From NCBI RefSeq assembly GCF_000485595.1, contig NW_014577246.1, positions 340,184-381,277 of the forward strand: 41,094 nucleotides of DNA. Direction: 5' to 3'. The notes below the pieces were generated by a model that did no database searches, was not told the origin of the DNA, and saw only the letters and a program-made list of their open reading frames with translations. The stretch comes from Priapulus caudatus (lineage: Eukaryota > Priapulida > Priapulimorpha > Priapulimorphida > Priapulidae). The position numbers and the translations under genes are program-made. Positions 3,328 to 38,443 of this stretch are shown in pieces. Numbering within the stretch: position 1 is the first letter of the stretch; each line of letters starts with the position of its first letter.

Positions 3328-3432
3328 ATGTCTCGTGTCAGCCCTAGAAACGGTGGTGACTATATGCAACAAGAAGATGAATGGGAGAGAGATCTGCTGC
3401 TAGACCCTGCCTGGGAGAAACAACAGAGAAAG
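3328..3432 (+). CDS. ACTN: alpha-actinin exon 1 (residues 1-35)
   Basis: The ATG at 3328 opens a leader of about 20 residues, then [19 protein letters not shown], the segment that precedes CH1 throughout the family. The donor is AAG|GTAAGA in phase 0. A possible acceptor (ctacag, ending at 3296) lies 31 bases upstream of the ATG, so the 5' UTR may itself be spliced; that part is inference. Intron 1, which follows, is about 11.8 kb. Confidence 0.95.
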
Positions 3433-14300: not shown

Positions 14301-17300
14301 CGGGAGGGAGAGAGGCGACAGTTCAACAAGTTTGTGTGTATATTATAGTAGCACTTCTGTGTGTTTCCAATCTTTGCAATATGGCATTCTTGTTTTTTAT
14401 CCGTCATGTAAACTGCTGGCTACTCGTAAAAACACTGGTTCTTTGATGAAAAGTCGTAGGCAAGTTTGAGTGACTGTTACCAAACAACAGTTCCATGATT
14501 TGTTTAGCATTTATACATGTATACAATAAGTACCTGTTTTTTTGTGCCTAGTTGACATATATGCAACAAATTCTAAAATATAAATGAGCAATTTTGACAT
14601 CAATAATTGAATTAATGTTGACTTTTGGAAAGGGAGAATGGTTTATTGTTCAACAGCTTTCATTTTGCATGCCTGTGGGTCTGAGTAGACTTGCAGTAAT
14701 TGTTTACATAACTACTGCTGTGCCTGTGACACGCGTTCGCGGTGTCAGTCACCCCTCTTGTACAACAAGAATAACATGACTGCAACAAAGATTGCACACA
14801 GTGGAAGGCAACAACTTAGAATGGTTTTAATGAGAGCAAATAATCATGGTGACACGTTAATTTGGTTAAATTGTGTGCGCCTGTTTGTTCTACGATCTTG
14901 TGTAAATTGTGATCGCTTGTTTACTTATAAAGTTATAATATATATTAGTATCTGCTTAGTAAACATGTATCTCTTCTGACCCCTCTTCCTCCTGCATTCA
15001 TCCCTCCATGCCCTGCCACCCGTGCTGCCTCCCTCCCTTGCTTCCCTCCCTCCCTACCTTCTTCCCACTCTATAATACTTGCATAAAAATATATACAAGT
15101 AAGCAGCCTCATGTTCTGTACACATTATTGGATGGTGGAAGCTTGATCTCCATGTGTGCGGACAACATCTAACTAACTGCTTGTTCTGTATCGTTGCAGA
15201 CGTTCACAGCATGGTGCAACTCACACCTGCGGAAAACTGGCACGAGCATCGAAGATATCGGCCAGGACTTCTGCAATGGTCTGAAGCTGATGCTGCTGCT
15301 GGAGGTGATATCAGGTGTGAAGCGATTGCTCACGGAGACCATCAATATTTTACTCCTCCCCCCCCCCTGAGAGAGAGGGGAGAGGTCCTGCAAGCTACGG
15401 TCATTGCCTACGTTATTTATTTACTAGGCAAGATGGTGGCCGCTGTCCGGCCAGGTCAAGGCTTCGACTAAGTGTAGCTACGTGCCTTTCATATTTCTCT
15501 TATTTTATGTGTACCTAATCCAATTTAATACGAGTGGAAATACGAGTTCTAGTAATAGTGGGATAAAGCATAATATACCTAATTACGGGACTATAATTTA
15601 ATCGCTGGCCAGTTAACCATGATGTTAAGGTTTCTCAAACACACGAGTAGGGCTGGGACATCATTGAAATGGATAGCTGGTGACTAATTCTTAAAGTCAC
15701 TGAACTGTTACAGTTACACAGGCAATGGCATGTTCACCTACATGATAAGAATGTATGGGTTAGACTATATGGCCTTAGATTGCCATTTATTAAAATATAC
15801 AGTACGTATGTGCACTGAGATGATAGTTATCTATGTAGACTTTAGATAATAACTTTAAATACTTATTTCTGCTGCATTCATCAGTACAATTTGTGACCTA
15901 AAATGTTTAGTTGCAATGAATTGCCGTTTGTGTTTATCACATTGTTTTGATCTCTTTGTGCCTAGGTGAACAGTTGCCCAAACCAGAAAAAGGAAAGATG
16001 AGATTTCATAAGATTGCGAATGTTAATAAAGCCTTACATTTCATCGCAAGTAAAGGAGTAAAGTTGGTCTCCATAGGTGCAGAAGGTCAGTGGCATTTCT
16101 GTGGAGCAGTATTGCTATTGTGTTGAAAACACCCTTTACTCAGAACATTATCATGCATTTTGTTGTACACTTATCCAGGGTCCTCTTCATAACTTTAACG
16201 CATGCCGGATTCGGCGTGCCCTCAAAACTGAAGCTAATTTGTGACATCCCATAATTCCTCTGACAATTAAACTTCAATTGGAAAATTTATGGCTAATGCA
16301 CATGCCGTAATTTATATATGTTTTTATTTTTTTTCCTTTTCATATTTTTTCTGTTTATTAGGTGAAAATAAATGGGCAAAAAATGACATGTAGAAGGTTA
16401 TTAATTTTTTGAATCGATGTGTTCATATCCAGACCCTTCCCTGTTTCGTCCATAAACAACACGCCTTCTGAAATTCTCTTAGGGAGAACCTTATTTAACA
16501 ACTACAGTATTACTCTAATCATAAGGAAACTAATAAAGAACATATAATATCCACGAGTAAGGTTATGTAATAGCGATTAATTCCAAGAAATCTAGTTGCT
16601 TTAAAGGGTTCATTACTATTCCTCATGAGTATTAAGAGAAGCTGTATGTCGGTTAATACATTATTTATTCATGCTTTCCGAAGTTATGGTGATGTGAAGA
16701 AAGCATTCTGCATGACCTCTTTATTGCTTCATAATATTTTCAGAAATTGTGGATGGCAATGTTAAGATGACGCTGGGCCTCATCTGGACAATTATACTCA
16801 GGTTTACTATCCAGGATATTAGCATTGAAGGTAAGCCCACTCACAACCTCACATGGAAGCTGCTATGTTATACTATGTTTTGTAGAGAATCTATACATGT
16901 CAGAAGATTTCCACTGCAGTAACTTGTGCTTTTACACCCTTTGGCACGTGCAATGTTCCGTTTAGTATATATCTATCTTGCCGTGAAAGGAAAAACAAGT
17001 AGTTATGGTTTTGGACCAATTTTAGGGGTGTAACTGTAAGCGCTGTAGGAGTTATCACATACCCTTGGCTGAAGTTGTTTTTTTAGCAGTAAAAGTGAAA
17101 AGTAACGATTGACAGAGATGATTGCCAGCAGTCTGAACTAATCTGTTAAAATCTATTTATATAACGCATTTAGTTTCATTGAGTTTGACATAAGTCACCC
17201 TCTCCGTTAATAACCGCGTTGGGGGAGTGGTAGTAGCTTACCCGGGCATTACCACGTTTCTGGTTATGAGCATCTTCATTTTGACTCTGTACTTGAATTT

Positions 17301-17587
17301 TACAGAGTCGACGGCAAAAGAGGGGTTGTTGTTGTGGTGTCAGAGGAAAACAGCACCTTACAAGAATGTAAATGTGCAAAACTTTCACATGAGGTGAGCA
17401 GTGAGGTCGGCTATGGTCTGGTATTTCCGGCCATACTGAATGCCTGTACACATCATCACGGAATGTAAAACAATTGAAATTCCTTCCTCAATTGTTTATG
17501 AAAGTTATTATTTTGTGTGGTATACTGTTAATGTAAATCGTACCAGCATATGCTGTACAGTGCAGTGTGTGTGTGTGTGTGTCTGTG

Positions 17588-17631
<44 letters not shown>

Positions 17632-20600
17632 TACATGTGTGTGCGTGTATGAAGGTGTGTCTGCGTGCGTGCATGTCAGCATGTGTGTGCGCGGATGTGT
17701 ATCAGTGGTCATGTTTTACTTATGTACAGTAGTAATATTTACAGAGATAAGTGTCATTACTGCTGCTTATATGGAGAAATGAGTGTTTAAACATTTTTGT
17801 CTGTGCTCTGACAGTTTCAAGGATGGATTGGCATTCTGTGCCCTAATACATCGGCATAGGCCAGATCTCATTGAGTACCAAGAGCTGAGAAAGGTATTGT
17901 GGTATCTTGTGCACAGGTTGACCCTCCCAGATTTCCCCATTATGCTCATTCTGCTCTGTTTCCTACTCTTGGTGCAGGCTTATTAACAGTCCTAACATTT
18001 ATTTATATATTTTTTTCAGTCTGTGGATGCACACTTCGCCTCTGGTCACAATCTTACTTGTCCTTCCCGTTTAGTTCTGCCATTTATTTTATTTTGATTT
18101 GATTTGTTTTTATAGTTGGAGGAATGGCCTGGCTCTCTGTGCACTTATCCACAGACACCGGCCTGAGCTCATTGACTATGGTTCTCTGTCTCGGGTACGC
18201 TGTCCTTGCATGATTGTTTTTAGTGGTTGACTAATAACGTCGCGGTGGTGGGAAGTAACACATTTACGCACTGTCATTACCACTAACCTGTCTAAAAAAA
18301 TGGTTAGCTTTCATGTTTTGGTTTATATTATATAGTAAGGTGAAGCTTGCAGAATGATAGCACCTTTTATGGAACCATCAGCAATAGTGCTGCAAATCTT
18401 TGGGTGCTGCAAATGCAATGGGTTTGGTACTGATTTTCATATTCACAATATGATAATATATATATATATATATGAAAATTATAAATACAAAGCTTCATCA
18501 TCATGCCAAGACTGCAATATCAAATATCAGGGGCCAGAGGGTTAAAACGTCATTTTCCTTAAGTTCAGTGGACTAGCTCATACAAAAATGGCACTTCGGA
18601 TTTATGGCCATGATAAGACTAAGAAGAGCCATCTTCTTGTAGGGTCAGTGCACAGACTAAATTTTGTAGACTTGCCAGGATATCTAATAATAATTGGTGT
18701 CAGCATTTTTTATCACATCGAAAGAAACGAGAAATGCCCATTCTTAGAACGAACAAACAGTGGAGCTCTGGTGTAGGTCATAGAAGAACTGTTCAAGAAT
18801 GGAACAACAGTCTCTTCTAATCCTACTACCTCTCTTAATGCTACCTTTGTAGTGTTCACCCTGTGTTTATAGGCACTGTCATATGATGTGTGTCTATACA
18901 AAAAAGCTCCCCAATTATGGGAAAAACACGTGACAGTTGTTTGTCATTTGACCATATTAAGAGGCCGTGGGAAATGAGCTGTCATGATTGGTATTCAGTC
19001 TTCAGTTCTATTTCATGGAATGAAGACTCTTATAAGATTGGCATTGTTATAATATCTAAACAAGGAAAGGTCGTTAATATTAGGTATATAATAGGTCCAG
19101 GAAATACTCCAGCTGAGTTTAAACATATAAGAGTATCACACGACAGATTTCCGATATGTTAAAGGAATGGTTGGTATAGCTATTAAGAAATTTGTGGGTC
19201 TTTTGCTTGAAGGGAAATGTATATTTAACATATATGCACAATAGCGTTACCATTATATTTTGTACACTCAAACCGGGTAAAAAAATTCTAATCACTTGAT
19301 TACTTTCGTTCTTCTATTTAATTATATCAATTGCCAATGATAGAAGAAGCACAATCAATGGCACATCTATAATCTCTCTGCACCCCTTCTTTATGCAATT
19401 AACCATTTTCTAGAGTCCCTGAACAACCCAGTCAATGTTGAACCATTATTTGTTGTATTGTAGACGAACCAAAATTTCACAGAATGGACTCGACTACATT
19501 AACAGGCATATTATCAAAGTACATCGGTCTATTTGAAGCTATTCTAGAATTGGTTATGCTTGCTTTGCTACCATTTATATATAAAACGATGATATCAAAC
19601 AATACTTAAATAATAGGAATCTGCTAGTTAACACTGGTAGAAAGGAAGCGGCAGATTTCCTCATGTTATTATGTGTGGTCTCTAGTAATGTGTTCACCTT
19701 TCATCCACCGGCGTGGACATAAATCGACTTTGGCGGAGTGAGTATTCCGACATTACGTGCCAAACACATGCAGCACCAATTAGCTCTCTGCATTTTCCTA
19801 CTGTCACATTTTACGATCTTACGATGGAATTACCTGAGTAGACTCACTGCGTGAATCAAAGTACAGTGTAGCACGAGGCCAGCACCTATATCAGTACTAA
19901 AGAGATATGTGTTTTGATGATGGCACAGTATATTGTGTACTCAGTTGGGTCATTATCGCGAATATGCATGTCATTGGCCAGATATGTATGGTGTTTTTAA
20001 ATCGCATGCTTAGCAAGTCATACTGCACTTAATGCCGATATAATATTTGTATATGCGCAATTGTTGAGATACTGTACATGCAATAAGCAGCTTCGTGATA
20101 GTTAGACATGTTTTCATTAATTTGTACAGGGTTGAAAATTCGTGTACATTTCATTACTCGAGTCTTACGTATTGTTAGCGATGTTTTCTATATTTTTTTG
20201 ACCAACAGGATCAGCCTTATGAAAATCTAAACCTGGCATTCGATATTGCTGATGAGCATTTGGACATTCCGAAAATGTTAGATGCCGAAGGTATGTGCAT
20301 TTATTTGGGATTCTGTCAGTATAAGCTATAATAAAGTCATGCTTACCTATGTTTTATAACACTTTATATTGGAAAAAATAATTCTGCATTTTTTAAAGAG
20401 AGATTACCACTTATATCACTCCGGAGAATATATAGGCATATGATACAGTGAAACTGGCAGGTGTTCAAAATACAGCTCTTACAAATCTGTGTATTACTCA
20501 TATCAGCGTGGTTCAATATTGCATAGAAGCAATGTATAACAGATAATGATAGTGATAACGGATAATGATATGAAAAAGAATTACAACTAGTGGCACCTGT

Positions 20601-23600
20601 AGGTAGGTCTAAATAACTGACTATTGCTTATGCACCAGCATAAAGAAGGGAGTGGTAGATAACCTGCGCTTTATCACACCGTTAGGTAGGGGGGAAGGGT
20701 GCGTCTTTAGAATGCATATTTGTCATGTCTTATTAACTCATTTAGGTGCCTAATAGGAGTTATTCTTCCACCTAAAGCAATGATTTCACTTGTTCTAATT
20801 GTTCTTACATTTTCTCGACCGTTCTGAGACATGCCAGTACTCCTTGTGTAATACCAAGTTTATATAGTAAGGCATATATAGTAAGTATAGTAGTAGTTTA
20901 TGTAGAATGCTCGCACATCATTCTTTTCACAAAGACGTGTGCCGATCTGCATTTCAAATTAGATTTGTTGAAATATGTCAACATTAGCGTGTGATACTCG
21001 CTCACACAAGATGTCATTGACCGAACCCTGTCTTTACATTAGGTTACCTTTGCCTTCATGTCAGGATAGGTACCAGTCTAGAAAAATTTACATCACATAA
21101 ATACATGCACTGTTTTGTGACAGCGTTTGCATATCTTGTTTTCGCGGAAATCAAGAAAGCAGGTGCAAGTTTGCTGTTTATTTACTGTTTTACAGCTTAC
21201 AACAGCACGGATTTGTAGTAATTTTTATGTTGAAGTAATCAGTAATAATATATACGCTGACAGATGAGTATAAGTTTGTTTACATTTATTAATTTATCAG
21301 TTTATTCGGGAAATGACCAATTGAAGAGTAGTTAGTAACGCATTCTATTTGGTGTGTGCATTTGAGTTACAGTAGATATAATAGATGGCCAGTGAAACGC
21401 ACGTGATAGCAGTTGTGCGATATGTGTTTCGTTTTCACAGACATGGTTAACACGGTGAAGCCAGATGAGAGAGCTGTCATGACGTACGTCTCCTGCTACT
21501 ACCACGCATTCGCCGGTGCGCAGAAGGTACGTCCATCTGTCTTACATGACTTGCGACTAGCATGCTGCCCTAGCTTATGTTGAGTTAATGTTAGGACTAA
21601 TGTTAAGACTAATCTTGTTTCTGGCAAGGGGCCCGTGGTTTCAATGTTTAACTGTCAGTCGAGGTTAAAGGCGAAATTGCCCATTATCGGGCATGAGAAT
21701 TTCCCGCGATTTCGCGGATTTCCGGGTTTTGGTTTTAATTTTGGTCATTATTGAGATCGATGCAAAAAACTAATAATGCTGCTCTAGTTCAGTATTGCGA
21801 TGTTTTTTTTCAATTAACGGTCTTCGAGTCGAAGTCAATGTTAAGACTAATGTTAACTGGCATAAGTATAATTTTGTTTCTGGCAATGGGCCCGTGGTTT
21901 CAGTGTTTAACTGTCAGTTGAGGTTAAAGATGAAATTTCCCTTTATGGACAGGTGTCTGTTCTATAGAGTGCACCGCTAACACAGACAGGCTGACTGTAT
22001 GAATTTGTTGTGGTAAAAGCATCTGGCTAGTTAACTGTGTGTGGATTGGTGCGTGTAGGCAGAGCAAGCAGCCAGCAGAATCTGCAGGGTTATGGATATC
22101 AACCGTGGCAACGAAGAACGGATGAAGGAATACGAACAACTCACAAGCGAGGTGAGTCTATTATTCATGAGCCATTATTCATTATTTATTATAGCGGTTC
22201 ACCCACTTTACGTGCGTGTTTCCTGTGTTGTAAGACATCCTTTGCATTCTTCCACTTTTCTTGCGATCTCTCTTGCTGTCTCTCTCTCTTTTTCTCCCTC
22301 TCCCTCTCCCTCTCCCTTTCCTCCCTCTCCCTCTCCCTTTCCTCCTTCTCCCTCTCCCTCTCCGTCTCTCTCCTCCTTCCTTCTCTCCCCTCCTCCCTAT
22401 TCCCCTCTCTTGCTCTCAGACTCTTTCCTTCTCCCCATCTTGCCCAACTCTCTCTTGCTCCCTTTCTATTTCCCCATATTTTTTTTTTTTTTTCTTCTAC
22501 TAATTTCCCTTCAAAATGCCACAAACCAATGGTAACTTCTAACAATTATGTTTTAGCTACTGGAGTGGATAAGACAAACAAAGCCTTGGCTGGAGGATAG
22601 GACCATGGATAATACGATGATGGAGTTACAGGCTAAACAAGCAGAGTTTCGTAACTACAGATGGCAGCACAAACCACCCAAACTGGAAGAGAAGGCACAT
22701 CTGGAAACAATGTTCAACAATATTCAGACAAAGCTACGTGTAACCAACCGGCCGGCGTTTATGCCAACCTCAGGAAAACTGCTGAGCGTAAGCTAACACA
22801 TGTGCAAGAGAAATTATCTGCAATACAATTCTCTGCTCTATGCAGCAAGCCAACCTTTTGTGTGTCAAAGTGTTTGTAATGTCTGGTTGTAAAAGAGGGG
22901 CACTGCAAAAATAATTTTGCTAATGATATATTGATAACACATTCATTGATAAAACACCATATTGTACTCACTTATTTACGTGTTCGGGTAGATTGAGAGA
23001 AATAACCCAGACATTCGCTCGGAGTTTCGTTTCATGCTCTACTGGTGCATGCAAACCGTCTAGTGCCCAAAACTAATGTTTTTATTATGGTTTCGATTTG
23101 CTACATTAAAACTCGATCTATGCTCAATCAATAAATGATGCTTTAGTACGTAATAGAAAAAATTATCCTGGATTTTATTTATGTCTTGACCGATCTCCGA
23201 ACATGACTATGGATATTTCATTGCTATCAAGTTTTTCATTTCAAAATAACTTGGAGATCAATTGCGTGACCAAACTGATCTCTATTTCTATTAAATCCCA
23301 ACTGCAGTATTTTTTGTTGATGTAGGACATAAATATTGCTTGGAAAGAACTGGAGAAGGCAGAGAAAGGTTTTGAGGAATGGCTGCTGTCAGAAATAATG
23401 AGGTATGACAGTGCACTAATACACATAGTATCTAAAATAATAATTCTATCTATAGTTTTACTATCTGTTTGACAAGACGAGAAATAGTCTATTAGGTTTT
23501 GTTTCAGGGTTTTTATTAATAACTCCCTAAAAACTACTGAAAATAGAGCACCCCATCTGTGTACTGACTAACAAATGCAGTCATTATCTGAATGCACAAT

Positions 23601-26465
23601 CTCAATGTTATTAAAACTCAAGTATGTGACTTTTAGATAACAATGTGTATGTATATATGTATATATATATCAAGAGCTAATAATACCTAGAGTGTACAAC
23701 GGAAAAACGGGAAAATAGTGCTATTTCACGACATGATTATTCTACTTTGCCTGCGAGTCTAGAATAATTTTATGGTATTGCATTAAGCAGAATTCTTTGC
23801 TCTCTAAAACAAGACCAACCGCTTGTCAATAAGAGTAGCTGGAAACCGCGCTAAGCGCGGGCTAGATTAAGCCGCGTTCACACGCCTGGCATCCAGCTTA
23901 TTCCGTAACCTAAACGCCTCTAAGGTTGCTTCGTGAGAGTTTCGTTTTCCGCCATAATTTTATGAATGATTTTCGGGTGCAGTGCAGGTGGAGGTACTTT
24001 CGGGGGCATCGCGCCTATGCCCTTATCTCCATTATCTTTCCTAGCACGGCTAATGCCCGTCATGATGGAGCCGGCAATGTTGTTTTTTATTAAGTCTACA
24101 ACGCAGCTAGTAAGAGTACCAAATTTGGGCATGTGACATCAATTATCAGCGCTCCAAGCCGGTGACGGAAACCGATAGCCGAAATGCTTAGACGCGTGAA
24201 GGATCGGACAGAAGTGGATTCGAGCGGCGTTTGCATGTGGGAGGGAGGTTTAGGAGCCGCATATCTCCGCCTAGGAGTATCGTATTGACAAGGCGGTTGG
24301 TCTTGTTTTAGAGAGCAAAAGAATTCTGCTTAATGCTAATACATGAAATTATTATAGACTCGCAGGCAAAGTAGAATAATGTGTCGTGAAATAGCACTAT
24401 TTTCCCGTTTTTCGTTGTACACTCTAGGTATTATAAGCCGTTGAATATATATATATATATATAATATATATATGTATATGCACACATATACATATTGTTA
24501 TCTAAAAGTCACGCGAGTAGGATTTTTCTGAAAGCACTATATTTCTATTCCTTTTTTTCAGTAAGATTTTATTTTCGATAATTTATACAAATGAATGACG
24601 GAGACGCGCCTTTATGGTTAATGATGATCTGGATTATTGATGGTTTCAGAAATGCACAATGCCACCTGAATAGGTGGGAAATACAGGTAAGCATTCTGTT
24701 TTACTGCTATAATCTTGTTGTTTGCTTGCAGGCTAGAGCGGATGGACCATTTGGCTAAAAAGTTCAAACAGAAATGTGAGAGCCATGACCGATGGACGGA
24801 TGCAAAGCTTCTCTACCTGCGAAACGAAGAGTTCAGAAATTCAAAACTCATGGATTTGAAGGTGCGGGTAACTTTTGGAAACCGGATGCACATATAGCAG
24901 AGTGACTGAGACATGGGTTAGCCGTATATTGCTCTCTTTTATAGTTGTACTGATGTAGCTGAACTAGCCTGAATGAAAAGCCTGAAAAATAACTCCTGAA
25001 TATGATGCAATTCTTAAACTGTGATCCATGTAGCAGTGCTGCATCACCGACGTTAAAATGAACTTTTCTATCGAGTGCACATTGGTGCACCTACATTTTA
25101 AAACTGGACATAGTCACAATTTGTGTGTGCACTGCAAGAGCATTCCATAACCATGTTATTATTACTTGCTATTGCTACTTATTTACTCTATAACATTGTG
25201 TTCGAGTGATTCCACCACACATTCTTTAGGTGCACTAGTGGTGCACTGACAGGGTCTCCAACCATTCCTCATTCTGCGGAATCATTACGATTTCTTGGTT
25301 TAATTTCCACATTCTGCAGCGGCAAGGTTATATTCCTCATTTCAGTTGCACTGTGCAAAATTTTCACTGATTGTTCGCATTGTTCGCTTGGACACATTGG
25401 TTTTTTTTCAGCTGGTGCCTGAGCACTGGCCACGCATGGTGCAGTGGAGATGCAGCAAGTTTATTAATAGCCCTCATATCACTGCCCAAGTCGTTTCCTG
25501 GAAATACACACTCATAGTGCTCTCTGCCATTACTTTAGCTTTGCACCCGCCCCCCCCTCTACCATCGCTCAGTGTTATAATGTGTTTCTATGCATTTTAT
25601 ATCTGGCATGTCTACGGTAAATGGAACAGCCTAGTCAGACAGGCGCTGTCTGCAAGGTGTCGCGTAGTTTGTCTGCTAATCAGATTAACACGTGGGGAGA
25701 ATGGCGTCCACATTGCCAATCAAAAAACCCCGAATTTTACAGAAATTCAGGAACGAATATACACAAATGTGTCCTGTACTTGTGAAGTCAAAACTCAGTG
25801 TTAATCATGGCTATTGCATGGTATGTAAGACAGACTGCAAATGGGGCACGGAGGAATGAAAAGTGTTTTGAATCCTAACTTGTAGGGTTGAGTCTAGGGT
25901 TGAGATAGTGTCATCAGACATGAGAATATGGCCCACAATATGCTGCAGATTGCAGGAAAATGGCTTAAATAATTCAAAATTTTCTGGGGGGGGGCATGCC
26001 CTCAGACCCCCCTAGCACTGGCATACCTATGGCACGTGGGCCTGCCTGCAGCAGCCAAGGTACATTTCGCCCCCCTCCCCCCTGTCCATCAATTTCTGAA
26101 TACGCCACTAGTCACCACCCTACCACTACTCACTACCGCTACTCATCACCGCCGTATTCCGTATTTGGAGTTCACAGGGTTGGAGACCCTGCACTGATGT
26201 AGTGCTACTGGGTGTACGGCTAAATGTTTAGGGCCTTGGTGCGTCCTTGCACCTGTTAATTTCGAATCCTAGTTATGATGTGTGCAGACACTGTGGTTGC
26301 AATGTCTGGTTCTTGTTTACAGGCACACAAGAAAAAACACGAGGCATTTGAAAGCGAGGTTGGGGCGCATCAGGAGCGGGTTGAACAAATCACTGCTATC
26401 GCCAATGAACTGAAGTGGGTTAATTATCTTTTATATTCTAGGCCATACACAGATGTGTGTATGTA

Positions 26466-26499
<34 letters not shown>

Positions 26500-26508
26500 T
26501 GTGTGTGC

Positions 26509-26555
<47 letters not shown>

Positions 26556-29500
26556 TTTGTCTGTATCAGAGTGTGTATTGATGAAATGATGATGATTTTT
26601 TGCTATATTGCTTTCTCTGTGATAACAAGTCTTGTAACACTAACATTTAAGAGTAGGCAACACATTTTTCTTCGTAAATTAGTTGACAGAAAGAAACATT
26701 CGGTCGGTGAAAATGGTAAACATCTGCGTAACTGGCCTAGCATAGATTAGTAGACATTTGAGGTGCATCATATATCATGAATGTTGATACATCAGCACAT
26801 GCATGCATGCAAGCACGCGCATCCACGCACGCGCACGCATGCACGCGCACGCACACACGCACGCACACATCTTTGTCATGCTATGTCTTACTATTTTATT
26901 TTGTTTGCTCAGTTCTCTAGGTTACTATGATGCTCCAGCGATTAATGATCGGTGTAAGGTAAGAATATGAAGTCGCATAAATTTGTAAATAAATACACCA
27001 GTAGTGAGTAGAAGAATTTAATGTTTGCTAGTCTCTTATTCAGTCTTTCCATTAAAAAATCAAAAAATGCGTGATTGTGAAAAGGAGGTTAAATATCTAA
27101 CTTCAAAATGTGATTGTGGAGTACTGATATTTTATACAAGCTGATGTTAATTGCTGATCAGATTAAGTTAATTGCTGCTTCCGGGGAAGTGCTCATAATA
27201 TAACTTTTTAATTTAGGAAATATGTGATGGCTGGGTAGACTTGGGAGCACAGTCACAGGAGAGAAGACAAGCTCTGGAGGTATGTCACTCTGTAATGCTC
27301 GATAGTAATATAACACTGTAAATGAGTAACTGTAATAAATCTTTCCACAAGTGGTCCTTGAGCTTTTTAAAATATAGTAAACAACGTAACATGTGGTTTC
27401 CAGCAGAAATTGTTCTATTTTTAGCTCATCTGACATAGTCAGATGCAGCTTGTAGAATCGCATGATCGTCCGTGCGTCCGTCCGTCCGTCCGTCCGGGCG
27501 TCAACAGTTGGGCACAAATCTTAACCGCTCGACGTACGTCACGATATTCGGAAGTGGGGGGTAATCCGAAAACGAGTTGGGATGTCGAAGCTGGGGGTCA
27601 AAGGTCAAAGTCAAGAGGTGTAAAAGAAGGGGAACATTCACTCCTTAAGTTAAAGGCTCACAATGCGCATCCAAACGCTAATTTCTCCAGTACTAGAACT
27701 AGCAAATACTTCTTGTCATGCATAATCATACTACCTTATTAGACGAGCAGATTTGGACTTTTCAGTCAAACAAATATGCAAAGTTTGTTTTATTATTGAT
27801 TCTTGTTTATTAGGTACTTCTTTGATGACATATCCAAAATGGGACACAAGTTTCAACTCATAAGTTACCTAATTTGCATATTTAAAAATGGCCGTCATTT
27901 TCAGATTGGAGGTCAATTATTCTCTCAAACTATTCATTTTCAGCCTAATAACGCTATTATAGGTGAATAGAAACATGGCCAATGAATTTAAAATACATAT
28001 TTAAAAGCCCAAATAACCTTTCTGAACAGCTAGGTTCAAATATGTCAAAAGTATGTCAATAGACACATTTTTTAAACCAAAACAAGGAAAATTACAAGCA
28101 TTTAATGAAGTATGAAAACCACCGTTCAATTGCAAATAATTATATAGCACACACTGATATATTTACATTAATCTTTTGGATACATACTGTGCATTATAGT
28201 ACTCATACATATCCAATGGTATGTTTGTACAAAGTCCGTCTTGACACTTTCCACAGGCTTCATTACAGAACATCCCGTTCTTCTTGCACAAACATATCAT
28301 TGTGTCACAATACTCCTTACATTTGCAACGTATTATCTTCAATAGCGCATCAGGAGCTGGGTTGTTGTCCATTCTCTCGGGCATCAAACTTTCACATTGG
28401 CTATTCCAACCCCAATCTTTCGGTTTTATTGCTATGTTTCCTATCCATACTTGAGTCTGTAGGAAAACTCTATAAGAATAGACTTGGCAGATCTTTCTGT
28501 CGGTGGCAACCCTTTTATGTCGACACTCTAGAGGCTCTTCACAACTTTGTCACCAAACATCTTTCTACGTAGACTATTCAAAGTGGTACCTTGTCCACCA
28601 TGCACACATACTAATGCTTTGGCCCCAGCATCTCTGATTTCATTCATGGCTAGATGAACTTGACATGAAGCATGTCACCTATCTGCATTAGTTCGTCCGA
28701 TTTCTTAGCCCCTAGCACACAAACCTTTGCCGATCCCATGGAGTCCAGATGTGGTATTGGCACCCACATAGAGCATGTAAGAAATGTAGGTATGTGCATA
28801 GCCGGCTTCCTAAAATTGCACATGTCGTCTGGATGTTCCACCAGTGGTCTCTTAATTGCACTCTTCTCTGACTTCATGAACAAGCTCGGTACCTGGTTTA
28901 TGGTGGTGGCACAAGAGCACAAGGATGTCAGTATCCTCTGCAATGACAAATGTCGTCTTGTACACGGCCATGTTCACGGCTGTCTGGACAATCAACAAAT
29001 CGGCGTCGTCTTCTGCATGAATGGTTTCGATGTCCTGTTTCCTCATCTCATCAGATAGCATGTTGATTAACTCTTGTTTGTTTGATTTGTTCATCAGGAA
29101 TGTCTTCTTGTCTATCTTCAATGGTAAGTCAAGCGCTAGTTTTACTTTTGCTGACGATTGACCACGCTGCACGTCGTTGGTGTGTCACTGTCTTGATTGT
29201 TTCCTGTGAGTAGCCATCATACACAACTATTGGGTGGCATACTTTGCACCACACGTATATATGGGTTGATTATTTGTCTATACATATCCCCTTTGACCAT
29301 GGCAAACGCTGTTAGAAGAGAACCACCATCTAGAACATTGCATTCTGCTTCTAGAATATTAAAGTCTTGTGTGTCTCTGCAGAGTTTAGAAATAGCATCT
29401 AGTCCGCAAGCTAGCTAGATCTAATCCGCAAGTTTTGGTTTTTGTAAGAGCGTTTATGGTAGGCCATGCTTTGTAAAGAGGGATGGTGGATAAAGCGACA

Positions 29501-32500
29501 GCTCGTATCTGAAAAACCTCATTTAGATCGATATCAGTGTTATATGCTGATGATCAGGAGTCTCTGAAAGAGCAGCTGCGGATCGACAACCAATTCCTCT
29601 CCATCGGAAATCACCCTTCGCTCCATCACTTTGACTTGGTTCTTTTTTCTGAAGACATATTTTGTAACCTGCTCGCTTTCCATGCTGGTAATGATGGACT
29701 TGCCTATTTTTCAGCCATGTGAGCGTTGGACACACTTGAGGCAATGCCTGTTGATATGTCATACAAGTAATCGCTCTTTTTGACAGGGTCATGGCTTTCA
29801 AGGTATTCAAAAATGATTGCCGTATCTGCCATATCTCGCCTTTATATTGCACTTGACTGAGTTCACTGGTCGTGTTCTTGTACCTACTAAGCTTCTCCAT
29901 CTCGGTTGTTATCTGTGCATAATCAGGCATCGTCAGCAGCCACCTTGTCCGTTGCGTCTCGTCATCCCTCGTCCACGCGTGATTCCACCTTGCTCTTTAG
30001 AGACTTCATTAAAACCTGCTCAAATGATCAGATCCGTTGCCAAAGCACCCCAGATCTGAAGCTACGTCTGAAAACCTATTTCCACCCATGATCCCTTGAA
30101 AAACACCAGGTTTCTTTCCTCTAGGTTCAGCATGTCCTGCAGGAACAGATGGACGGACTTAGCATAACTGTTGTGCCCACTTGCTGCAAAGTATTGGTAG
30201 CATTTCCTTCAAGGACTTCAGGTGAAATATGAAGTTGCCAGTGCGTTAGCTTCAGGTCAGATCTCAGAAGATCAATTGTTTTTATATACTGCAGCCATAA
30301 CTTCCCTGTTGTGTTGCAGATATGCCAAGCTTCGCTTTCTGGAAAAGCGTATTGAGTGCTTGAGTATACATCATCATTTGTTGCAGATACATGTGTTTCA
30401 TCGCCGAAAACCTCATCAACATCTGCAGAGCATGGGCCACTACTGTTCGTTGGCTTCTTCTGTTGATATCTTTTTCAAAAGAACTGCGTTAAAAGCGCCA
30501 TCACCAAAAAGTGGCCCCTGACTGCTCTTGCATATCGCCTTCCCGCTAGGCATATGTGTTGACTGTGATGACAATATTCAGAAAAATTGTCCCGTTGAGT
30601 CAAACAATTTGCATCAGTTTGTTTCATTGTTGTTTCTTGTAATTAAGTAGTTCTTGATGATGTCTTGGTTTAAAAAATGTCATTTTGACGTATTTTCGAC
30701 ATCTGGACCTTCGACCTAGTTATCAGAGAGGTCATGTGGGCTTCTAATATGCTTCTTAGTTTCATTGGGTCATATATCTATTAACCTCTAATACAGTTAC
30801 TGAACTCAAAATGAATATTTTTAGAGATAATTTAACCTCAAAATTTGAGAATAGCAGCCATTTTTAAATATGCAAATTAGGCAACTTCTGAGTTGAAACC
30901 TGTGTTCCATTTTTGGATATGTCACGAAGAACTACCTAATAAACAATAATCAACAATAAAACAAACTTTGCAATTTGTTTGACTCAACATAGAATATTTT
31001 TCTAAATCCTGCCTCGTCTATATGGCAAAATAAACTCTAGTTCCTCCCATTTCACTGTGCGGTTGTCTTATAAAAGGTATTTTGAAAATACCTCCAATGT
31101 TGTTGATTCTCCGATGTTGTTGACAGTTTCCCCAATCCCCAAGCAACCGTGCAGCGGTGCTGCGGTACAGCGGTACGGCGCGCAGCAAAGATAAAAACAT
31201 GTGACGTCACGTCACCACTTCGAGGCTATTTTGTTTGCAAAACAGTCGGCGTTTGCGGCCAGAATGCCAGTTTTCTCACCTCTTTCTTGTGGGTTTTAAG
31301 CAAACGCGCAGTGAAATGGGAGCAACTAGAGTTTATTTGTCATAAGGTAGTGTGATTATGCATGACACGAAGTATTGCTAGTCTAGTACTGGAGAAATTA
31401 GCGTTTGGATGCGCATTGTGAGCCTTTAAGGTATAGGAGGAAATGCAGAATTGCGGCACAAATCTAAACGGCTCGACCTAGGCTCGTGATAGTCGTGTGT
31501 ATAGCATCATGTAGGAAAAGCCATCACTGCTGCCGAAATTGAGGTCATAGGTCAAAGGTCAGTGGGCACAGGGCAGATTTTAGACATTTTCTGAGGACAT
31601 GGTCTGACGGAGCGATTGAAAAACTTTTTTTGTTTCAGCGGTGACCTAGTATTTTTATGGTCTTTATTGAAAGACATGAAATGTCCCTTCTGCTGACATG
31701 CGAAGAGTAAGTGTCGGATAACCTTTTGACCCTCAAGAGGAGGGTTTAAACTTGGATTTGTTGACTGTCTGTTAGAAAGAATTTGACTGCCGGGTTTGCT
31801 AGTAGAATCTATACATGCCTGGATGTATGAGGCTACAATGTCACAGTGAAATTTCAAAAGCTAAATTTGGTTAAAGAAGGTGTATGTTCCTTAAATCGTA
31901 TAATTTCTATGTCATTCTTGTACTGTCAGTATGTTACATGTAACGTATGCCACTGCCAGTGCGCTGCTGCCAGTGCATGTGTTGTGTGCAGTTTTTGCCT
32001 GCGTTAATTGCTTACAGGTGGCAGCTCTCTATTGCAATTTGCAGCCTGTAGGCTTGCGTAGGTAAATGATGAGTGCTTACCTATCTCTGTCTTGCAAATA
32101 GTTGTTGCTACTACGTATGATGGGAGCTTCCATCTTTAATCTGAAGACACTTAAACGTACGCGCCATCTCGTGGCAACTTTCATAACGATCCCAACGAAC
32201 ATTCTTTTGAGAAGGTTCCTGATACCATCCCTGTGCATTCCACTGTTTCGGCGTGTATGTGAACACATTTGGGACTAACAGGGTTTACTGAATCCCACCA
32301 CTCCACCACAGAGTCACCGCAGTAGACGTTAGATGAGCGCTGTCGCTCTGCGGCACTTGTTGATTATACTGAGGTTCTTCAATCCCTGGAGGGGTAATAG
32401 GCTTAGATACAAATATCCGGATATTTTTGGAGATATTTAGAAGTTTTTGGGATATTTAGAAAAATCTGGATATTTAGAAAATTCCTTAATATTTAGAAGA

Positions 32501-35500
32501 TAAAACACAATCTTCTCAAATATTAAGGATTTGTAAGGATGCGTTTGTCCTTTTCTGTTAAGAAAAACCAATCCAGCGGTGGCAAACTGCATGCAGTGCC
32601 CCTTCGTACACTCAGGATACCACTGCCACAATGCTAGCACTATTTTTAAGTGGCGGACTCTGGGGAAATCCAGCGAATGGAGATTCGTAAACAGCGTATG
32701 ATTTTTTCGCACACAATAAATATGTTTAAAAGACATTACGTTGAAATAACTGAGATATTTAAAAAAAATCTTTGGGATATTTAGAAAAAAAATTGAAATA
32801 TTTAGAGATTTTTTGGAGAATTCCCGAAAACATTTAGGCCATTTTTTCGAGATATTTGTATCTAAGCCTAAGGGGTAACATGACGTGCTAGTGTAATCTA
32901 TGAAGTCGTAATGGGATCTGTGAGATCGTCATAAGCGCGTTCTTCGATGCTGATCTACTAAAATATGTGCACAATGCTCTGTCACGCTGCAGACACCTAC
33001 CTATAAGCCTTGAGAATGTGGTAACCCACAACCTTTTCCTGGTTGGGCATCTACACCGTGTGCTACCCGGGATAGAACTATGGGGTGTCATTCCACTGGA
33101 TTGTTTTTGTGGGCTTCACAATAGAAGTTTGCTAATGCCTGATTTGCAGGAAGCTGAACAGATGCTGGAGGCCGTGGACCAGCTGCATCTGGAGTTTGCG
33201 AAGCGCGCAGCACCATTCAACAACTGGATGGACGGTGCTCGTGATGACCTTAATGACGTCTTCATCGTCCACAACATCGGAGAGATTCAGGTGATTCGAT
33301 GTCTGTTCCATGTTATCAGAAGTAGATAGTAGGGAAGGAGTGTGACTTCAATAAACAAGGGAAATTCGTCATTTACTAGCCTTAGAATACCTACGATTTA
33401 CTACGCGTAACTCAACCAACTTGAGCTCAAATCGTACACAGTACATTCGCCTAGCATCGTGCAAAATCGTTTCCTCATATACACCCACAATCCGGAGATA
33501 CAGACTAAAACGTACAACACGATTTTCCATTCTGTTGCCAGCAAACTCGATGTGTTATCCGCCTAACTTGAAACAAAAGGCAGCTACTAACGACTTGCGC
33601 CCTCGGCAATGCGGTGTGGCTCGCTGAGCTAACCTTTGACCTATTTACAGCTGCCTTTTGTTTCAAGCTAGGCGATCAACACATCGAATTTGCTGGCAAC
33701 AGAATAAAAAATCGTGTCGTACCGTTTAGTCTGTAACTCCGGATTGCGGGTGTATATGAAGAAACGATTTCGCATGATGCTAGGCGAATGTACTGTGTAC
33801 AATTTGAGCTCAAGTGGTTAAGTTACGCCGTAGTAAATCGTAGGTATTCTAGGCTAGTAAATGACGAATTTCCTTTGTTTATTGAAGTCACACTCCTTTC
33901 CTATTATCTACGCTGATGTTATGGTATTTCTAAATAATTAAAGGATAAAAGGATATGTATATATATATATATAAAGGTAAAGGATTAAACAGATTAAGAT
34001 TTTCCAACATGGAAAACTGACTCCCCCGGAAACTTTGTTTCATTACTTCCTTTCTCGATAGGTGGGAGGCAAAATACAGTATCCTAAACATATAAGCTGA
34101 TCTGATTCCTATGCTGATATTGCGATATAGCAAATACATTACAGTATTCACATTGTCACTGCACATGCTTGGCATGCTTGGCAGTTTCAGTTTGTATCCG
34201 CTGTTCGATCCTGCCTACTGTAATAAGTAATGCGGTGGCGTTTGTAGGTGAGGGTGTTGTTCTGTGTAGTTGCAGCTGCATGACAACTATGGAGGTTATA
34301 GTGTTGCATTGTTCGTCACGCAAAAATGACGAAACTGAAGAAGATGTGGAACTTTGTTTAGCTGTACTTGCTGTTGTATGCTGACGTGAATTGTTGGAAA
34401 TTTGTTTGGAAATTGTTGGAATGTAGCAACCTGAAATCTTTCCCACAGGATCTGATAGATGCCCATGGTCAGTTCAAGATGACGTTGGGGGAGGCTGACA
34501 AAGAGTACAGCTCACTTCTAGGATTATCCGACCAAGTTGAAGAATTGGTACAGCAGTACAATATTCCAGGTGCAACAGAGAACCCATACACGAACATTAG
34601 TCCTGAGGTAGGAACCTTCCGGCATTAGGAATTTATACTGAGAACAATAGAAATGTTTTTTGTAGCATGCTCGGTTTATATAACCTGATGGTTAACTACA
34701 TTAGTTTAACCACAAAATCACTGTGAGTGTACATGTCTATGCGTGAATGCGTGCGTATATATTGTTATGATTGTGTGTGCATGCGTGCGTGTGTGTACAC
34801 GTGTGTATAATTACCTATGTGTATCATAGCATGTGTGCACCAATTTACAAGGTAGTGGTAATGAGAATAGTGCTTTCTTGATTTCAGCACCTAGGTGCAC
34901 TTTGGGATATGGTAAAGAAGCAAATACCAGAGAGGGATGCAGTGCTGCATGAAGAACTTGAAAAGCAACAGTGTATCCTTTTCAAGTACTGGTTGTGTGT
35001 GGCTGCCCTCATCTTAAGTGCCTGTGATTCATGTTGGTGTTATACATGTTATATGGAAGGGTATGCTAGTACCATGGACAGATGGATGGTGCAGGTAGTA
35101 CAGGCAGCAAGATCTGTGTTCCTTATTTGACAATGCTCTGTCACGCTGCAGACACTTACCTATAAACTGTGCAAGTGTATTAACCCACAATCTTTTCCTG
35201 GTTGGGCATCTACACCGTATGCTGCCTTGGATAGAACTAGGGGGTGTCATTCCACTGGATTATTCTTGTGGGATTCAGAATAGCAGTTTATGCCATGTTA
35301 GCAATGAGCTACTATTTTGCGACTTGGTCGTTGTTAGTATCGTAACGTAACTATAACTTTAGCTATGTTTCAAAAGACAATGCACCACCACTTTAGACGT
35401 AGATGTGGCTGCTGCCTGACTTCGAGTTCGTTATATGGAAACAAATAACACACACGATAAGCTGCGCGCAGTAGCGACCTTTGATGACCTTGACCGCGAG

Positions 35501-38165
35501 GGTTGCAGGCAACGAGCAGCTGCGGCGGAGTTTTGCCGAGAAAGCGAACACGGTCGGACGCTGGATCGAGAGCCAGATGGACGCGGTGGCGAACATGGGA
35601 CTAGAGTGCAACGCGACGCTCGAGCAGCAGATGACCAAGGTGAAGTCATACGGCACGTCCATACAGGAGTACAAGCCGCAGTTCGACGAGCTGGAGCAGA
35701 TGAACCAAGTAAGCGAAAACACCGAGTATCGTACTAAGCAAGCGAGAATCAAGTATATCAAGTAGGCGTGTGAACACCTATATATAAATCATTATATTTT
35801 AGTATTTAATGAAAGTTGTATACAAAATAATTGTTAATGCAATCCTCGGGTTCAGTGTCAGTAAGCTATATATCAGTGATCTAATAGCTAACATCAAAGT
35901 GGTCGTGGTAATGATGAGAGTATCATTATAATTTAAACTTATAAACTTATAATTTTTAATTTGTATCGATTAGCGCATATATCTTGTGTAAAATATCGAG
36001 TTGTAGTGCCCAAATACCAAGTATATAACCAAGTAGGCGGGAACACAGTTTTTTAGGGAGTTATTAGTAAAAACCCTGGAACAAAACCTCATAGACTAAT
36101 TTTTAGATTGAATGTGCATCAGTATACTAACATACCTCGTGTTGTAAAGGCGTGCATTGATTAGCACATATAATGTGTGGAAAATGTCAAGTGGTGCCCG
36201 AATATTATACCTCTAGGTTTCGTTGAATAGTACTATAGAGGCAGATTTCTATATGGAGGCCGGGCAACATTTTGTGACCCCTGTGAGTAAAGACTTAGAC
36301 AGACTATTTTGTCAGTTTCAAGAAATAAACACCCATGCATACACCTGCACGTGCATGCAGGCATGAACACACGCACGCACGCATGCACGCACACACACTG
36401 TATATAATGTTAAGTGTAATTTATAGTTGTATAATTAATGTAATACTAGAAAGACCTACTGTAATGTCGTATTAGCTATCAAGATTTATTTCTCCATTTC
36501 TTGACTTGTGTAATTTTATTTTTTAGGAAGTACAGGAAGCACTTATCTTTGAAAATACATACACAGAATATACAATGGAGGTATGTCTTAGTTAACCTAA
36601 GCACTAATGCCAAGTTCTACATCCAAGCGCTGTGTCACGCAATAATGTTGGAATACGTATTGGTGCAATAGAATAACATGAGGATACGATCTCTAGTGCA
36701 TTCATGGTATATAAACTCTCAGCCGATGATTTATTGTGAATTTATCTACATTCAGGTCATCTTATACCTATCTGAATCAGACACCTGAATAAATATAATA
36801 CAGTACTAAACACGTAATGCTACCGTCTTGCCTGGGAATAGTACTCTGCTGTTTTGAATCCGAAATTATTAGGATCGAATAGAAACAGACATGCCTCTCA
36901 GACTGTGCTTAACACCAGCAGGGGTATGGGTGACTCGTTTAATACTGTGATAGCACTTGAACACGTGTGGACAGTGTATGCGCTACTGCTTATGATCATG
37001 CTAGCTGTACAACTATTAATGCCAAGGGCACCTCTCGTTCACAGTGCAGTTATTGCATGTATAATCCCAGCACTCGCAGCTGTAGTCTGTTATATATGTC
37101 GTGTACTGCGTATGTCCAGCTGTCTAAAGCCAATGACAGTGTTAATAATTTCAGCACAATTGAGTACTATTTTTAGCATCTGCAGTATAATATAGCATTG
37201 TAATTTGTACTCATTTTACAAGTAGATTTTTAGTTTATTCCGAAACGATTCTTTATTTCCGTAATCTTCAAGTTCCTACAATCTTTTGGGGGCAAAGCTT
37301 GGCAAGAAAAGGGCCAAGCTGGACCAGACCAGCCCACCACCAACGTCTGTGCCCTCCACCTACCAGGACTCCCACCTCCCCACCACAACCCCACTAACAC
37401 ACTACCCCATTCACGTTTATAACCCCACTCCCATCACCACGAGCAGGGCTTTGATATGGCATAGCCGGGGAGGTTTAGAGATGTATACAATTGTTTAATT
37501 TTCATGCAAATATTATCGGTGTCGTGAAATCATTTGGTTTCACACGTAGTTTTCTCATGCAGAACTTCTCTTGCAGACACTACGCGTTGGGTGGGAACAG
37601 CTGATGACATCCGTTCCCAAAAGCATAAGTGAAATTGAAAACCAGGTACGGCAAAATCGTTACCCCCATCTATCAGCAGCATTTACCACAAGCAAAAATC
37701 AAGATAGCCATTGCAGTGACCACGATAGTTAGCAAACATTGCCATGGAGTGAGGTTTTCATTATTATGAACATATTCATGTTTGATGATGAAATAAACAG
37801 TTTGTCCTATTAGATGATGAAATAAACAGTTTGTCCTATTAGATATTAATATTGGCTGCCTCTATTGCTCTGTTGTCTCTATTATCTCGCTCTTTCCTTC
37901 TCTCTTTCTCGCTCTCTCGCTCTCTATCTATCTATTTACATATCTCTCTCGCGCTCTCTCTCTCTCGCGCTCTCTCTCTCTCGCTCTCTCTCTCTCTCGC
38001 TCTCTCGCGCTCTCTCGCGCGCTCTCTCTCTCTCTCTTTCTAGAGCATCAGCTAAGCTGTTCGAACGCTCGCCTGAGGATGTGTGCTAGGCGCTAACGAG
38101 CGTGTAGACTTAGGGGCAGCAGCGGCAGCAGCAGCAGCAGCGGCAGCAACTGCAGTAGCAATAGC

Positions 38166-38217
<52 letters not shown>

Positions 38218-38399
38218 GCACCAGCACCAGCACCAACACTACCACGAGCAACAGTAGAAGCAGCAGCACCACAACCACCACCAGCAGCACCATCACCACC
38301 ACCAGCAGCAGCACCATCGCCACCACCAGGAGAAACAGTAGCATCCCCACCACAACCATAACCAACAGCAGCAGCAGCAGCACCAGCACCTGCACGAGC

Positions 38400-38443
<44 letters not shown>

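What the first reader, a model, noticed from the sequence alone, without database searches (positions are those of the whole stretch)
17815..18194. Mutually exclusive duplicated exon in the CH2 domain of alpha-actinin
Exons 6a and 6b are both 79 nt, share phases, and both encode the CH2 core helix. 17 of 27 residues are identical and 12 of those use different codons, so the pair is old and selected, not an assembly error. Either one joins exons 5 and 7 in frame; both or neither shifts frame. The swap changes F/W, D/N, F/L and the end of the segment (basic LRK against LSR). It begins right at the end of the phosphoinositide-binding stretch seen in vertebrate actinins, so the isoforms could differ in actin affinity or lipid control. 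Known alternative exons in vertebrate actinins include the EF-hand NM/SM pair; I do not know of a described duplication of this exon.
Basis: partly seen in the sequence, partly recalled or inferred. Interest (0 to 1): 0.88.

Follow-up and report, generated by a model that had tools for sequence, protein, structure and literature searches.

The report
Swappable actin-binding exon in alpha-actinin
A marine worm's alpha-actinin gene carries two alternative versions of one small exon in the actin-binding head, the same exon that oysters and clams also swap in their annotated proteins, so one gene can probably make two crosslinkers with slightly different grips on actin.

Summary
The window is Priapulus caudatus (phylum Priapulida): 24 coding exons, with 6a and without 6b, spell its annotated alpha-actinin exactly (P0002, 894 aa). 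Exons 6a (17815-17893) and 6b (18116-18194) are each 79 nt with AG/GT sites and the same phases. They share 48/79 nt and 17/27 residues, 12 of these with different codons. Either joins exon 5 to 7 in frame; both, or neither, gives a stop. None of the 22 other exons tested has a second copy in the window.

Two things go beyond the finding. Priapulus has a sister actinin gene that also carries two copies of exon 6, 25/27 residues alike at saturated synonymous divergence. And in two bivalves, annotated isoforms X1 and X2 differ only in this exon: W...R against F...K, the contrast of 6b against 6a.

So this is a recurrent protostome exon swap, not a priapulid oddity. It differs in place from the vertebrate (exon 8) and, by primer position, the fly alternative exons. 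Common origin between phyla is unresolved: copy order is opposite in two molluscs and the paralog lacks W/R. No RNA was available, so use of 6b in Priapulus and strict exclusivity are inferred. Likely role: tuning CH2 contacts with actin, CH1 and lipid.

The parts
3328..3432 (+). exon 1 coding part ([10 protein letters not shown]...WEKQQRK)
   Evidence: exact match to the N terminus of P0002, GT donor after it
15200..15314 (+). exon 2, start of CH1
15966..16085 (+). exon 3, CH1
16744..16830 (+). exon 4, end of CH1
17306..17393 (+). exon 5, start of CH2 and most of the lipid-binding peptide; leaves the split codon AG|
17815..17893 (+). exon 6a, 79 nt, [27 protein letters not shown] (F...K form)
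   Evidence: present in annotated isoform X1 P0002
17894..18115 (+). 222-nt intron between 6a and 6b, the shortest of 23 introns listed (intron 1 not listed)
18116..18194 (+). exon 6b, 79 nt, [27 protein letters not shown] (W...R form)
   Evidence: CH domains still recognised with 6b in place
20209..20290 (+). exon 7, CH2
21441..21526 (+). exon 8, end of CH2; place of the vertebrate alternative exon 8; no second copy in the window
22059..40260 (+). exons 9-24: spectrin repeats, EF hands, C terminus QSDL-stop

Best explanation
Exons 6a and 6b are a functional pair of tandemly duplicated, mutually exclusive exons. One or the other is spliced between exons 5 and 7, giving two alpha-actinins that differ only in residues 172-198, inside CH2. 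Shown: homologous copies, equal length and phase, intact splice sites, open frame with one copy, stop with two or none, the same arrangement in the sister gene, and bivalve isoforms differing only in this exon. Inferred: transcripts with both or neither are removed as nonsense messages, since the 222-nt (here) and 1004-nt (paralog) introns look too long for steric blocking to enforce exclusivity. Inferred: the swap tunes actin binding. The exon carries the two arginines that match the CH2 positive patch of human ACTN4 (R204/R206), kept in both copies, while charge around them changes (K/R 5 and D/E 4 in 6a; 4 and 2 in 6b); it also changes the last residues of the lipid-binding peptide (SFK against SWR). 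The likely result is a shift in weak CH2-actin contact or CH1-CH2 opening between cell types.
For: Pair anatomy and reading frames. Only duplicated exon among 24 exon peptides tried. Synonymous change is saturated or near it while replacement change is limited: 6a-6b pS 0.81, pN 0.27; paralog pair pS 0.96, pN 0.07, 25/27 residues, with the same both-or-neither stops. Ostrea edulis X1/X2 (P0151/P0219, listed with the same longest contig length) differ at 4 residues and Ruditapes philippinarum X1/X2 (P0200/P0263, likewise) at 7, all in exon 6. Gene models of Tegillarca (P0027) and Nucella (P0031) carry both copies. The actin-binding domain with 6b still scores 180.5 bits for its two CH domains. 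The window gene is labelled 'isoform X1' and its cluster has two member sequences, so a second annotated isoform may exist; I could not see it. ACTN4 R204E/R206E weakens F-actin binding (PMC13001351, a preprint, passages); PIP2 peptide TAPYRNVNIQNFHLSWK (PMC1523333, passage); the ACTN4 exon-8 swap lies near mutations K255E and T259I (PMC4539665, passages).
Against: No RNA reads: use of 6b in Priapulus is not shown, and the two Priapulus proteins I could read carry 6a (P0002) or the first paralog copy (P0100). 6b has N where D stands in 77 of 77 distinct exon-6 segments of the 299 proteins listed (pattern-free check; 79 of 79 by the pattern, which allowed D or N), and two rare residues (R3 and L8, each in 2 segments), which could mean relaxed constraint. 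The functional step rests on vertebrate proteins; the patch arginines themselves do not differ between 6a and 6b, and the structure model is of low confidence over this stretch.
Confidence: 0.8

Rival explanations
1. 6b is a decaying or unused second copy: only 6a is spliced in and the pair is a remnant.
For: Only 6a is in the annotated product I could read; 6b alone of the segments compared lacks D at position 4.
Against: 6b is open, keeps 10 of the 11 residues that are invariant in 77 distinct segments and 17/27 identity at high synonymous divergence; scored against the gene's own sites its acceptor is the second strongest of 24, that of 6a the 4th weakest, and its donor ranks above that of 6a; two bivalves have both forms annotated; the paralog keeps two nearly identical copies.
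Confidence: 0.1
2. The exon-6 pairs of Priapulus and of molluscs are independent duplications that converged on the same two states (W...R and F...K).
For: Copy order is opposite: W...R first in Tegillarca and Nucella, F...K first in Priapulus. Both paralog copies are F...K. Tandem exon duplication recurs by convergence in orthologous genes, actinins among the families named (PMC9741552, passages). Positions 2, 18 and 27 are among the few that vary much at all.
Against: The 2 or 3 informative residues in each of five mollusc pairs all group 6a with F...K and 6b with W...R, none the other ways; the same exon was hit each time.
Confidence: 0.5
3. Each Priapulus gene duplicated its exon 6 separately, after the gene duplication.
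For: Quartet sites do not decide: 5 favour pairing by position across genes, 4 pairing within genes, 2 neither (P 0.29).
Against: Needs two like events; codons at R14 (AGA), H15, P17, Y22 and S26 are shared by the second copies of the two genes.
Confidence: 0.25
4. Assembly artefact or allelic variants of one exon.
For: Draft assembly (2952 contigs).
Against: 31 of 79 nucleotides differ between the copies, and the same arrangement occurs in a second gene and in molluscs.
Confidence: 0.01

Closest known systems
Bivalve alpha-actinin isoforms X1/X2 (Ostrea edulis, Ruditapes philippinarum), annotation only
   Same: Isoforms differ only in the segment coded by exon 6; W...R against F...K contrast
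   Different: In the two mollusc models holding both copies (other species) the W...R copy comes first; no paper on them seen in the listings searched
ACTN4 exon 8 / SpEx8 variant (vertebrates)
   Same: Swap of an exon for an alternative inside CH2 of alpha-actinin (PMC4539665, passages)
   Different: Codes the end of CH2 around K255, two exons downstream; exon 8 has no second copy in this window
Drosophila Actn larval, adult and non-muscle isoforms, regulated by Muscleblind
   Same: Tissue-specific alternative exons in the region coding the actin-binding domain (PMC4550062, passages; PMC3315501, passages)
   Different: The fly forward primer codes KDNPLEN, translated by hand, downstream of the segment of exon 6, so the fly alternatives amplified are later exons
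Vertebrate exon 19a/19b EF-hand swap
   Same: Alternative exon variants in the same gene family (PMC4550062, passages)
   Different: Calcium switch in the EF hands, not the actin-binding domain

Membership tests
alpha-actinin | tandem CH domains, four spectrin repeats, C-terminal EF hands | tested here: met
   Pfam: 2 CH, 4 spectrin, EFhand_Ca_insen stretches
alpha-actinin | closest to alpha-actinins of other animals, not spectrin or filamin | tested here: met
   best PDB matches are alpha-actinins 1-4, ahead of spectrins and filamins; the 120 rows listed are named alpha-actinin, F-actin cross-linking or CH-domain protein, or are hypothetical or unnamed
mutually exclusive tandem exon pair | adjacent homologous exons of equal length and phase with splice sites | tested here: met
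mutually exclusive tandem exon pair | both or neither breaks the frame | tested here: met
   paralog
mutually exclusive tandem exon pair | each copy used, never both in one transcript | not testable with these tools
   no RNA data; bivalve annotation is indirect, and two mollusc gene models join both copies, probably as prediction errors
vertebrate exon-8 ABD swap | duplicated exon is the one around K255 (exon 8) | tested here: not met
   exon 8 (21441-21526) has no second copy in the window
Drosophila Actn ABD alternative exons | alternative exons lie after KDNPLEN | tested here: not met
   exon 6 lies before that point; no second copy of exons 7-24 in the window
mollusc exon-6 pair | same exon, W...R and F...K forms | tested here: met
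mollusc exon-6 pair | same order of copies | tested here: not met
   W...R first in 2 of 2 mollusc models with both copies, second in Priapulus

The most novel reading that the evidence does not exclude
The exon-6 swap is a protostome-wide switch, older than the split between priapulids and molluscs, giving alpha-actinin a W...R and an F...K form of CH2 that differ in catch-bond or weak actin binding; arthropods and others kept a single copy.
Probability: 0.3. Interest if true: 0.65.

Novelty: new variant of a known kind. Interest (0 to 1): 0.5.

Why it matters
Actinin actin-binding domains have gained swappable exons in several animal lineages, at different exons. A pair at the exon that carries the CH2 positive patch, present in both actinin genes seen in a priapulid and annotated in bivalves, offers natural matched pairs for testing how CH2 sets actin affinity, catch bonding and lipid control, and asks whether evolution reached the same two forms once or repeatedly.

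Tried and rejected
Steric blocking as the cause of exclusivity: the 222-nt intron is the shortest of the 23 listed (intron 1 not listed), but the nearest AG upstream of 6b is 43 nt away, so a branch point is likely far from the 6a donor; the paralog intron is 1004 nt. Rejected as sufficient, not excluded as a helper. RNA structure between the introns was not tested.

Muscleblind sites (YGCY, 200-nt flanks): upstream 3 (6a) and 4 (6b), downstream 4 and 2, within the range of the other exons. A pyrimidine-G tract at 17584-17631 upstream of 6a could bind CELF proteins (an idea, not tested), but five further such tracts occur in the window.

Dating exon against gene duplication from four 79-nt exons: 5:4:2 informative sites, not decisive.

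A structure model (mean pLDDT 75.8, pTM 0.38) puts residues 173-186 in a helix but at low confidence there (block means 56 and 62), so no structural claim rests on it. It was not searched against fold libraries.

Lek et al. 2010 and Roulier et al. 1992 are not held, so whether Lek et al. already list this exon is unknown. I recall that their abstract reports exon duplication in the actin-binding domain of several phyla; that is recall only.

Full report
What is there. The window lies on contig C186 of a 385-Mb genome. Splicing exons found by eye gives an open frame. With exon 1 (3328-3432) the 24 joined exons, using 6a, equal P0002, 'alpha-actinin, sarcomeric-like isoform X1 [Priapulus caudatus]', over all 894 residues. 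Priapulus is a priapulid, an ecdysozoan outside the arthropods. Pfam finds two CH domains, four spectrin repeats and EF hands.

The pair. Exon 6a is 17815-17893 and 6b 18116-18194, each 79 nt, both entered after the AG that ends exon 5. They agree at 48 of 79 nucleotides and 17 of 27 residues; 12 of the 17 use different codons. One copy keeps the frame; both give a stop inside 6b, neither gives a stop in exon 7. tblastn of 24 exon peptides (exon 1 not included) against the window finds only this pair duplicated (E 1e-9 and 2e-9; other off-target hits E 0.27 to 0.46). Scored leave-one-out against the gene's own sites, 6a has the 5th and 6b the 7th weakest donor of 23; 6a has the 4th weakest acceptor and 6b the second strongest of 24.

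Second gene. A search of the same genome with P0100, another annotated Priapulus actinin, found two exon-6 matches on contig C320. They are 79 nt each, at C320:128467-128389 and 127384-127306 (minus strand), with AG/GT sites and a 1004-nt intron between. They share 58 of 79 nucleotides and 25 of 27 residues; pS is 0.96 and pN 0.07, so both have long been held by selection. Both or neither again gives stops. A tree of 26 actinins, chosen from the 299 proteins listed, with exon 6 removed, joins the two Priapulus genes at 100/98; a tree that puts the paralog with seven arthropods instead is rejected (AU p 0.0005), with the caution that the window gene is a long branch. The gene duplication is therefore probably on the priapulid line. 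That the exon duplicated before it is simplest but not shown: 5, 4 and 2 sites support the three quartets.

Other phyla. Three protein searches matched 5320, 811 and 3541 proteins; the best 120 rows of each are listed, in all 299 proteins, and only these were examined. In them 302 exon-6 segments, 79 distinct, were read. Ostrea edulis X1 and X2 differ at four residues (W170F, L188I, Y191H, R195K) and Ruditapes philippinarum X1 and X2 at seven (W172F, E188D, L190I, F192Y, Y193H, K194A, R197K); all lie in the exon-6 segment. Each pair is listed with one contig length. Of four proteins with two exon-6-like segments, two (Tubulanus P0001, Acipenser P0003) repeat identical segments within longer stretches; the other two, Tegillarca P0027 and Nucella P0031, hold a W...R copy followed by an F...K copy. 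Priapulus 6a is F...K and 6b W...R. In five mollusc pairs (one of them made of two Haliotis species), every informative position (2 or 3 each: 2 and 27, sometimes 18) groups 6a with the F form and 6b with the W form. Against one origin: the order of copies is opposite, both paralog copies are F...K, and these are among the few positions that vary much at all. Many other listed proteins, arthropods among them, show only one form; absence of a second exon was not tested in their genomes, which the tools do not hold. I leave the origin open.

How it probably works. Exon 6 codes residues 172-198. Counting back from K255 and T259 of ACTN4 (by hand, the ACTN4 letters partly recalled), its HRHR motif holds the equivalents of ACTN4 R204 and R206 (P0002 R185, R187). 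Reversing these charges weakens wild-type ACTN4 binding to F-actin, assigned to a weak state with both CH domains on the filament (PMC13001351, a preprint, passages only). Both copies keep these arginines but differ around them (K/R 5, D/E 4 against 4 and 2). The lipid-binding peptide mapped in striated-muscle actinin ends in SWK (PMC1523333, passages); here its last residues are SFK or SWR. CH2 mutations raise actin affinity, explained by loosened CH1-CH2 closure (PMC5676748, PMC4756369, passages). Hence the proposal that the swap tunes weak actin contact, closure or lipid response. This is inference. One warning sign in 6b is N at position 4, where D stands in 77 of 77 distinct segments in a pattern-free check.

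What is known. Fly Actn is alternatively spliced in the region coding the actin-binding domain, with non-muscle, larval and adult forms (PMC4550062, passages). The published fly primer codes KDNPLEN (translated by hand), so the exons it amplifies lie after this one (PMC3315501, passages). ACTN4 swaps exon 8 (PMC4539665, passages). Actinins are named among families with tandem exon swaps in vertebrates, flies and worms (PMC9741552, passages); which exon is affected in the worm I could not see. I saw no description of an exon-6 pair in the listings (most capped), but Lek et al. 2010, the obvious place, is not held.

Verdict. Real, well conserved and wider than reported; a new variant of a known kind, already implicit in bivalve annotation. 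Use of 6b in Priapulus and function remain to be shown.

Noticed in passing
L021 (G000:C320:125600-131500), copies at C320:128467-128389 and 127384-127306: The second Priapulus actinin gene also has two exon-6 copies, 25/27 residues alike; the one P0100 record seen carries only the first copy.
   Followed up: yes
window 27650-31429: Intron 15 (5870 nt) holds a run of long inverted repeats (for example arms of 48 nt at 100% and 72 nt at 88%, 3.7 and 2.9 kb apart), like a DNA transposon; three open stretches between them match no Pfam family.
   Followed up: partly
P0059 (Branchiostoma lanceolatum): The amphioxus actinin model seems to hold two versions of the next exon (exon 7 segment), a further CH2 exon duplicated in this family (by eye).
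   Followed up: no
P0005 and P0030 (mites): Mite actinin models hold two versions of the exon-8 segment (MTYVS...YYH.F), by eye.
   Followed up: no
P0131 against P0134 (Haliotis rufescens): Isoforms X2 and X4 differ only by six residues (DESPME, 596-601), another alternative insert.
   Followed up: no
window 12097-12792: One run of N in intron 1, the only one in the window.
   Followed up: no
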